A stretch of DNA of 64,000 nt from Caulobacter sp. 602-1 (GTDB taxonomy: Bacteria; Pseudomonadota; Alphaproteobacteria; Caulobacterales; Caulobacteraceae), in the NCBI RefSeq assembly GCF_003931565.1, contig NZ_RRYI01000006.1, positions 248,001 to 312,000 of the forward strand, written 5' to 3'. Under the pieces are notes generated by a model that saw only the letters and a list, made by a program, of their open reading frames with translations, did not search any database and had not been told where the DNA came from. The translations under genes and the position numbers were made by a program. Shown here piece after piece: positions 26,120 through 60,167 of the stretch (positions within the stretch are counted from its first letter, which is position 1; every line of letters begins with the position of its first letter).

Positions 26120-26148
26120 TTGACATTAAGGAAGAACGCCTAGAGAAC
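26120..26148 (+). promoter_or_regulatory. lexA promoter with LexA operator (SOS box)
   Basis: GAAC-N7-GAAC direct repeat at 26134-26148 (spacer GCCTAGA), which is the alphaproteobacterial LexA operator read on the opposite strand as GTTC-N7-GTTC. A TTGACA -35 lies at 26120-26125 and a CCTAGAGA -10-like element overlaps the operator, close to the Caulobacter housekeeping consensus. It is 45 bases before the lexA ATG and should give autorepression. Confidence 0.85.
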
Positions 26149-26193: not shown

Positions 26194-26898
26194 ATGCTCA
26201 CCCGCAAGCAGCACGAACTGCTGATGTTCATCCACGAGCGGATCAAGGAGACCGGCGTCTCCCCCTCCTTCGACGAGATGAAGGAGGCTCTGGACCTGGC
26301 GTCGAAGTCGGGTATCCACCGGCTGATCACGGCCCTGGAGGAGCGCGGCTTCATCCGCCGCCTCGCGCACCGCGCTCGGGCGCTCGAGGTGGTGAAACTG
26401 CCGCAGCAGGCCACGACGGCGGCTCCGCCCAAGGGGCGTGGCGCCTTCCGGCCCCAGGTGTTCGAAGGCGGCGGCGCGCCGCCATCGACGACCGCGTCCG
26501 CCGCGCCGGCCAATGACAGCCGCGAACTGCCGATCCTGGGCAAGATCGCCGCCGGCACGCCGATCGACGCCATCCAGCACGAACGCGAGCGCCTGCCCGT
26601 GCCCGAATCCATGCTGGGCAACGGCGAGCACTATGTTCTCGAGGTGCAGGGGGACTCGATGATCGAGGCCGGCATCCTCGACGGCGACTACGTGATCATC
26701 AAGAAGGGCGACACCGCCACCTCGGGCGAGATCGTCGTCGCCCTGGTCGGCGAGGAAGCCACCCTCAAGCGCCTGCGCAAGAAGGGCGGCTCGATCGCCC
26801 TGGAAGCGGCCAACCCGAAATACGAGACCCGCATCTTCGGTCCCGACCAGGTCGAGGTGCAGGGCAAGCTGGTGGGCCTGATCCGCCGGTATCACTAG
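26194..26898 (+). CDS. lexA: LexA repressor, SOS regulator
   Basis: Represses DNA-damage genes until RecA filaments trigger self-cleavage. The start was placed at [17 protein letters not shown], the universal LexA start; the open frame continues upstream into the operator region. Residues 1-70 form the winged helix-turn-helix ([33 protein letters not shown]). A long linker (about 72-112), usual in alphaproteobacteria, follows. The cleavage site is Ala120-Gly121 in KIAAGTP. The catalytic pair is Ser155 (QGDSMIEAG) and Lys192 (EATLKRL). Length 234 aa fits. It has its own operator 45 bases upstream and a strong terminator after it. The window also holds a second operator, in front of sidA. Confidence 0.97.
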
Positions 26899-55647: not shown

Positions 55648-59079
<3,432 letters not shown>

Positions 59080-59114
59080 GACCAACCTCCGCTAGACGAC
59101 CGTCGTCATACGAC

Positions 59115-59204
59115 TCAGGCCACCAGATTGGCGACCGTGCACATCATCCAGACGAAGCTGGCGACCGACACAAGGGCCAAAGACTCACGCGCGATACGGA
59201 TCAT
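59115..59204 (-). CDS. sidA: SidA, SOS-induced cell-division inhibitor (29 aa)
   Basis: Tiny inner-membrane protein. In C. crescentus, SidA is a 29-residue, LexA-controlled protein that blocks division after DNA damage by binding FtsW/FtsN. Here a 29-codon frame begins [14 protein letters not shown] and ends in TVANLVA before TGA. Residues 8-29 form a single hydrophobic helix (with FVWMMC in the middle) after a short basic N-terminus. GGAGG lies five bases before the ATG. A LexA operator overlaps a good promoter 50 bases upstream. Length, operator and position next to dnaE all fit SidA as I remember it. The frame is too short for most gene finders. It may also be co-transcribed into dnaE. Confidence 0.9.
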
Positions 59205-59232
59205 AGGAGCCTCCACAGATTTCTTGTTTTGT

Positions 59233-59268
59233 TCCATATTCCGCTTTTGTTCTGTTCACAAGATGTTC
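59233..59268 (-). promoter_or_regulatory. sidA promoter with LexA operator (SOS box)
   Basis: GTTC-N7-GTTC at 59254-59268 (spacer ACAAGAT; GAAC-N7-GAAC on the coding strand). On the reverse strand a -35-like TTGTGA (59261-59256) and a -10-like TATGGA (59238-59233) are 17 bases apart, so LexA would cover the -35. The inferred leader is about 20 bases with GGAGG before the sidA ATG. Confidence 0.87.

Positions 59269-59480: not shown

Positions 59481-60159
<679 letters not shown>

Positions 60160-60167
<8 letters not shown>

What the first reader, a model, noticed from the sequence alone, without database searches (positions are those of the whole stretch)
59115..59204. 29-codon sidA gene between dnaE and lolD, easily missed by gene finders
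The sequence directly shows a 29-codon reverse-strand frame with GGAGG five bases before the ATG, one hydrophobic helix, and a LexA operator upstream. C. crescentus SidA is a 29-residue SOS-induced protein that stops division through FtsW/FtsN. Length, topology, operator and gene neighbourhood coincide. The helix contains FVWMMC, and the N-terminus is short and basic (RIAR).
Basis: partly seen in the sequence, partly recalled or inferred. Interest (0 to 1): 0.85.

Follow-up and report, generated by a model that had tools for sequence, protein, structure and literature searches.

The report
SidA division-blocking microprotein beside dnaE
This is a 29-residue membrane protein of a known kind (SidA) that the DNA-damage response should switch on to pause cell division, and the same gene slot in many distant relatives holds similar tiny proteins that the standard models tested do not recognise.

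Summary
Confirmed. The 29-codon minus-strand frame encodes a protein that matches NCBIfam NF033228 (division inhibitor SidA) over all 29 positions, 73.4 bits against a cut-off of 35. It lies between lolD and dnaE, with GGAGG five bases before its ATG and one perfect plus two one-mismatch LexA boxes upstream. It is a SidA orthologue in an unnamed 5.4-Mb genome of the Caulobacter genus. A match occurs in 72 of 75 genomes of the genus.

The unexpected part lies outside the family. In three of four other families of the order sampled, the SidA profile finds nothing convincing, yet a LexA box followed by a 24-36-codon single-helix ORF precedes dnaE in 74 of 117 genomes (52 of 87 held out). Shuffles give at most 1 per family. 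In 60 genomes of other orders there are 8 such units, against a shuffle mean of 0.4. One group is SidA-like by profile comparison.

So the window gene is an ordinary orthologue, but the slot looks like an alphaproteobacterial, fast-diverging set of SOS-controlled membrane microproteins. That they block division is inferred.

The parts
59115..59204 (-). sidA: 29 codons plus TGA stop
   Evidence: NF033228, 73.4 bits, 29/29 positions; syn/nonsyn pattern in 46 genus loci, rate ratio 0.139
59210..59214 (-). ribosome-binding site GGAGG, five bases before the ATG
   Evidence: sequence; SD-like GGAG/GAGG/AGGA in 108 of 132 loci
59254..59268 (.). LexA box 1, perfect GTTC-N7-GTTC (GAACATCTTGTGAAC in the gene's direction, -64)
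59238..59252 (.). LexA box 2, one mismatch (GAACAAAAGCGGAAT, -48)
59220..59234 (.). LexA box 3, one mismatch (GAACAAAACAAGAAA, -30)
   Evidence: 128 of 132 loci have two or more such boxes within 100 nt, shuffles mean 1.9, max 7
59112..59116 (.). GANTC (CcrM-type methylation site) overlapping the sidA stop codon
   Evidence: present at this position in 43 of 48 genus loci
59182..59186 (.). second GANTC, in sidA codons 7-8
   Evidence: at this position in 37 of 48 genus loci
55648..59079 (-). dnaE, DNA polymerase III alpha; its ATG is 35 nt past the sidA stop
59481..60167 (-). lolD-like ABC ATPase upstream of sidA
26194..26898 (+). lexA, the presumed repressor, in the same window
26134..26148 (.). 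the only other perfect LexA box of the window, 46 nt upstream of lexA

Best explanation
The ORF is sidA. In undamaged cells LexA sits on an array of one perfect and two near-perfect boxes just upstream of the start codon and keeps it off. After DNA damage RecA-stimulated LexA cleavage releases it, and a 29-residue peptide with a short basic N-terminus and one membrane helix is made. As shown experimentally for C. crescentus SidA, it holds the late divisome complex FtsW/FtsI/FtsN inactive, so septum synthesis waits for repair. Shown here: the gene, its family, its operator array, its synteny and its conservation. Inferred: LexA binding, induction and the FtsW/FtsN mechanism in this strain. Beyond the window, the same slot in other families and orders of the class holds LexA-boxed single-helix microproteins; the best reading is that SidA is the family-specific form of a wider, fast-diverging group.
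For: NF033228 over cut-off, 29/29 positions. A match in 72 of 75 genus genomes, 60 of 60 of the good-quality ones. LexA boxes in 132 of 132 loci at <=1 mismatch. lexA in the same window carries the other perfect box. The genome's FtsW has A31, F145 and A246, the residues whose mutation suppresses SidA in C. crescentus (PMC4211646 passages). Published: sidA is induced by LexA cleavage, and deleting it relieves the filamentation of a lexA mutant (PMC4211646 passages; PMC12700426 passages). Wider slot.
Against: No expression, translation or interaction data for this strain. Inside this window the perfect box alone is no rarer than chance. The wider group is not detectably similar to SidA directly except in one family (A1 v A3: 17 and 22 of 60 shuffles reach the observed score; A1 v A4: 6 and 15 of 60).
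Confidence: 0.93

Rival explanations
1. The short frame is a leader or attenuator ORF whose translation tunes dnaE, and the LexA boxes serve dnaE rather than a microprotein.
For: dnaE follows within about 30 nt at the median. In family f3 a LexA-like box sits within 135 nt of dnaE without a qualifying ORF in 6 of 21 ORF-less loci, one of them perfect. In the window no gene lies between sidA and dnaE.
Against: The amino-acid sequence, not just the presence of an ORF, is conserved (ratio 0.139), and C. crescentus SidA has a shown protein function (PMC4211646 passages). The gap to dnaE reaches 291 nt in other families. A conserved GANTC near the dnaE start hints at a separate dnaE promoter.
Confidence: 0.05
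2. SOS induction reads through into dnaE, so sidA and dnaE form one damage-induced operon that both stops division and supplies polymerase.
For: 132 of 137 distinct loci have dnaE on the same strand within 400 nt; the 35-nt gap in the window shows no T-run of an intrinsic terminator by eye.
Against: dnaE is not mentioned in the main text of the 2025 transcriptome study of the Caulobacter SOS response (0 occurrences; its supplements were not seen). The GANTC site at the junction suggests dnaE has its own promoter.
Confidence: 0.25
3. In the other families and orders the microprotein acts on something other than the divisome, for example as an SOS-induced membrane-depolarising peptide of the TisB kind (recalled).
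For: Sequences diverge so far that only family f4 is linked to SidA directly; f5 N-termini are acidic rather than basic.
Against: Same place, same operator, same size and topology; f4 aligns with SidA in register over 23 columns and links to f5 and f3.
Confidence: 0.3
4. A chance ORF.
For: It is only 29 codons long.
Confidence: 0.005

Closest known systems
SidA of Caulobacter crescentus (NCBIfam NF033228, div_inhib_SidA)
   Same: Length 29, one helix, sequence over the equivalog cut-off, LexA box. The dnaE neighbourhood of NA1000 sidA is recalled, but is seen here in the C. vibrioides DSM 9893 record (L125).
   Different: Nothing found beyond residue substitutions; this copy comes from another, unnamed species of the genus.
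DidA of C. crescentus (CCNA_03212)
   Same: Small single-helix inhibitor that keeps FtsW/I/N inactive (PMC4211646 passages).
   Different: 71 residues, induced by DriD and not by LexA, binds FtsN (same passages).
YneA of Bacillus subtilis
   Same: SOS-induced single-helix inhibitor reported to interact with FtsW (PMC13396833; title and start of abstract in the search listing only).
   Different: Gram-positive; listed as unrelated to sidA (PMC4211646 passage); no comparison was run here.
SulA of Escherichia coli
   Same: LexA-controlled division inhibitor.
   Different: Soluble FtsZ inhibitor (recalled); no similarity was tested.

Membership tests
SidA (NF033228) - the window ORF | Scores over the curated equivalog cut-off across the model | tested here: met
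   73.4 bits v 35, positions 1-29 of 29
SidA (NF033228) - the window ORF | 29-residue single-helix protein | tested here: met
   helix read from the hydrophobic stretch, no structure predicted (29 aa is below the tool's minimum)
SidA (NF033228) - the window ORF | LexA box in the promoter region | tested here: met
SidA (NF033228) - the window ORF | Directly upstream of dnaE | tested here: met
SidA (NF033228) - the window ORF | Induced by DNA damage through RecA/LexA | not testable with these tools
   no expression data
SidA (NF033228) - the window ORF | Blocks division through FtsW/FtsN | not testable with these tools
   only indirect: FtsW A31, F145, A246 present
SidA (NF033228) - slot ORFs of other families and orders | Scores over the curated equivalog cut-off | tested here: not met
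   0 families for 8 of 8 slot ORFs tried from outside the family; 25.3 and 17.4 bits (below 35) for the two tried from divergent genera of the own family
SidA (NF033228) - slot ORFs of other families and orders | Detectable profile similarity to SidA | tested here: inconclusive
   f4: 93.4% probability, 0 of 60 and 0 of 60 column shuffles reach it; f5 and f3 not directly, only through f4
SidA-like SOS slot (works like) | LexA box, then a 24-36-codon single-helix ORF, then dnaE | tested here: met
   f4 34/34, f5 26/29, f3 14/35, f2 0/19; other orders 8/60

The most novel reading that the evidence does not exclude
SidA is the Caulobacteraceae form of a class-wide, very fast-diverging group of LexA-controlled 25-35-residue membrane microproteins encoded just upstream of dnaE. 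They would be the long-missing SOS division inhibitors of many Alphaproteobacteria, unseen because they are too short and too divergent for the family models tested.
Probability: 0.5. Interest if true: 0.82.

Novelty: new member of a known kind. Interest (0 to 1): 0.6.

Why it matters
The window gene adds a species to a known checkpoint. The slot around it matters more. Many Alphaproteobacteria have no recognised SOS division inhibitor (recalled). A positional and operator signature (LexA box, single-helix ORF of about 30 codons, dnaE) now gives a concrete list of candidates that neither Pfam nor NCBIfam recognised (0 of 8 tried, except sub-cut-off Pfam noise). Each can be tested in one experiment in laboratory C. 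crescentus. It would also show that a checkpoint protein can keep its place and control while its sequence drifts beyond recognition.

Tried and rejected
Chance ORF: rejected by conservation. The 40-codon start at 59237: rejected, since that ATG is present in 15 of 46 genus loci, all sharing the same operator sequence. Phage origin: tblastn against 50,697 phage records gave no match, and the FVWMMC DNA pattern gave 0 matches in viral contigs; both would miss divergent copies. Paralogues: G036 has a second, 37-residue SidA-like ORF away from dnaE (L058) with no LexA-like box in 220 nt; a search of 75 genus genomes found that copy only in G036, the other matches being weak or the sidA genes themselves. 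A second weak place in G037 (L056, E 0.5) was not pursued. Direct homology of f5 or f3 ORFs with SidA: not found.

Search caveats: the 30 loci L205-L234 were the discovery set on which the ORF and box limits were chosen; L235-L321 are held out. Dinucleotide shuffles do not imitate real genes; the opposite-strand control gave units in 4 of 34 f4 regions and none in the other three families, and 5 perfect boxes but 0 units in the 60 class regions. The purifying-selection ratios for f3-f5 use only pairs of equal length with at least 60% amino-acid identity, which lowers the ratio, and the pairs are not independent. In L339 the automatic pick chose a neighbouring frame; the better candidate, MSEWVKD..., is supported by three genomes. 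Two of the ten other-order regions with a perfect box (L332, L336) gave no unit under the set limits. Two of 132 SidA-family loci have no recognised start codon (ACC).

Full report
What is there. The frame at 59115-59204 (minus strand) reads [29 protein letters not shown] and a stop. It is the only feature in 64 kb, both strands, where a LexA box (up to one mismatch) is followed at 25-110 nt by a 24-36-codon ORF with a strong hydrophobic stretch. NCBIfam names it SidA: NF033228, 73.4 bits, cut-off 35, 29 of 29 positions. Pfam has no match. The window lies in a 5.44-Mb genome in 241 contigs.

Conservation in the genus and family. A match to the 29 residues occurs in 72 of 75 genus genomes, and 60 of 60 of those at least 90% complete and at most 5% contaminated. 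In the family 347 of 390 genomes match at E <= 10, but that limit is loose and two genera match only weakly. I fetched 19 loci from the weakly matching genera g4, g6, g8 and g14; all 19 carry the ORF on the same strand upstream of dnaE (a twentieth locus fetched with them, from family f2, was a chance hit). Over all loci in hand, 137 distinct SidA-profile hits had 100 nt of upstream sequence; 132 are followed by dnaE within 400 nt. The five others are two loci near contig ends (L054, L134), two away from dnaE (L056, L058) and one chance hit (L187). Substitutions are mostly synonymous (rate ratio 0.139 over 1033 pairs from 46 genus loci). In an alignment of 21 varied family members the invariant residues are M1, S13, V14, F17, W19, M20, C22 and A25; more divergent genera relax some of these.

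Control region. 96 of 132 loci have a perfect GAAC-N7-GAAC in the 100 nt upstream (shuffles: mean 1.3, max 5); 132 of 132 have one with at most one mismatch; 128 of 132 have two or more (shuffles: mean 1.9, max 7). Successive boxes are mostly 16-18 bp apart. A recent study says about 97% of Caulobacter SOS promoters carry a single LexA box (PMC12700426, passages); the definitions differ, but sidA promoters look unusual in being arrays. The other perfect box of the window stands 46 nt before lexA.

A methylation site at the junction. All 132 loci have at least one GANTC between the sidA and dnaE start codons (shuffles: mean 64.8, max 78), although GANTC is rare in the window (99, against 312 expected). 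In 43 of 48 genus loci one overlaps the sidA stop codon; the four bases after the stop carry 0.39-0.64 bits of entropy, the next twelve 1.55-1.97. Conserved GANTC upstream of a gene is taken as a sign of CcrM-dependent control, and GANTC between -10 and -35 marks one class of cell-cycle promoters (PMC3973325 and PMC4287350, passages). I infer a dnaE promoter embedded at the end of sidA. Neither paper's main text contains dnaE or sidA (same calls; supplements not seen).

How it works. For C. crescentus, published work shows that SidA is made when LexA is cleaved, interacts with FtsW and FtsN, and keeps FtsW/I/N inactive; mutations such as FtsW A31K, F145L and A246T suppress it (PMC4211646, passages). 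The window's genome encodes an FtsW over the family cut-off with A31, F145 and A246. I therefore expect the same mechanism here; it is inferred, not shown.

Beyond the family. A 21-row SidA profile run over 398 genomes of the order gave nothing convincing outside the family (best outside E 0.004, a 17-residue partial match; the list was cut). Looking instead at the place, I took the upstream regions of dnaE from 117 genomes of four other families (dnaE hits; regions from those calls and 62-64). A LexA box followed by a 24-36-codon single-helix ORF is present in f4 34 of 34, f5 26 of 29, f3 14 of 35 and f2 0 of 19. The limits were set on 30 of these regions; in the 87 held-out ones the count is 52 (f4 22/22, f5 20/23, f3 10/26, f2 0/16). 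Twenty shuffles gave means of 0.05-0.2 per family and never more than 1; the opposite strand gave 4 in f4 and 0 elsewhere. An SD-like sequence precedes 68 of the 82 picked ORFs, other orders included. Syn/nonsyn rate ratios are 0.105 (f4), 0.162 (f5) and 0.026 (f3), for pairs chosen at 60% identity or more.

Other orders. Of 148 genomes with a dnaE match in a class-wide sample of 153 I took 60, mostly better-scoring and larger ones. Ten have a perfect LexA box within 600 nt upstream of dnaE (shuffles: mean 0.25, max 2) and 8 have the full unit (shuffles: mean 0.4, max 2). Follow-up in the two families tried: one ORF recurs in 2 of 6 genomes, the other in 3 of 4, with a perfect box upstream in all five loci and dnaE encoded in each locus.

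Are they homologous? hhalign of SidA against f4 gives 93.4% over 23 columns in register, f4 against f5 93.1% and f4 against f3 91.9%. None of 60 full and 60 layout-keeping column shuffles reached these scores, nor that of f3 against f5. SidA against f5 or f3 directly is no better than shuffles. So homology is supported step by step through f4 and not shown for the other orders. Across SidA and slot ORFs 207 of 214 have an acidic residue within positions 4-12, just before the helix. NCBIfam finds nothing in the 8 outside ORFs tried and scores two divergent family members below its cut-off; Pfam gives only sub-cut-off noise.

Literature. Ten full-text searches of the held library listed no paper that, from titles and starts of abstracts, describes SidA-like proteins outside Caulobacter or a microprotein upstream of dnaE. 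The library lacks most subscription papers, including Modell et al. 2011, so this is weak evidence of novelty.

Verdict. What is new is the slot. Names for the other families (Hyphomonadaceae, Maricaulaceae and the like) would be recall; the genomes are anonymous, so I give none.

Noticed in passing
window 59112-59116 and 59182-59186: Two GANTC sites in and at the end of sidA; at least one such site is kept between the sidA and dnaE starts in 132 of 132 loci, suggesting a methylation-sensitive dnaE promoter inside or just after sidA.
   Followed up: partly
L208, L209, L211, L217-L220, L222, L223, L227 and further loci: LexA-boxed single-helix microproteins upstream of dnaE in other families and orders, not recognised by the NCBIfam SidA model in the 8 tried.
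   Followed up: yes
L207, L226, L249, L285 (family f3): A one-mismatch LexA-like box 39-59 nt before dnaE with no qualifying microprotein: dnaE itself may be under LexA there.
   Followed up: no
L058 (G036:C3, near 315,100): A second, 37-residue SidA-like ORF away from dnaE in one genus genome, without a LexA-like box in 220 nt.
   Followed up: partly
window 26134-26148 and 26194-26898: lexA with a perfect LexA box 46 nt upstream, about 33 kb from sidA.
   Followed up: yes
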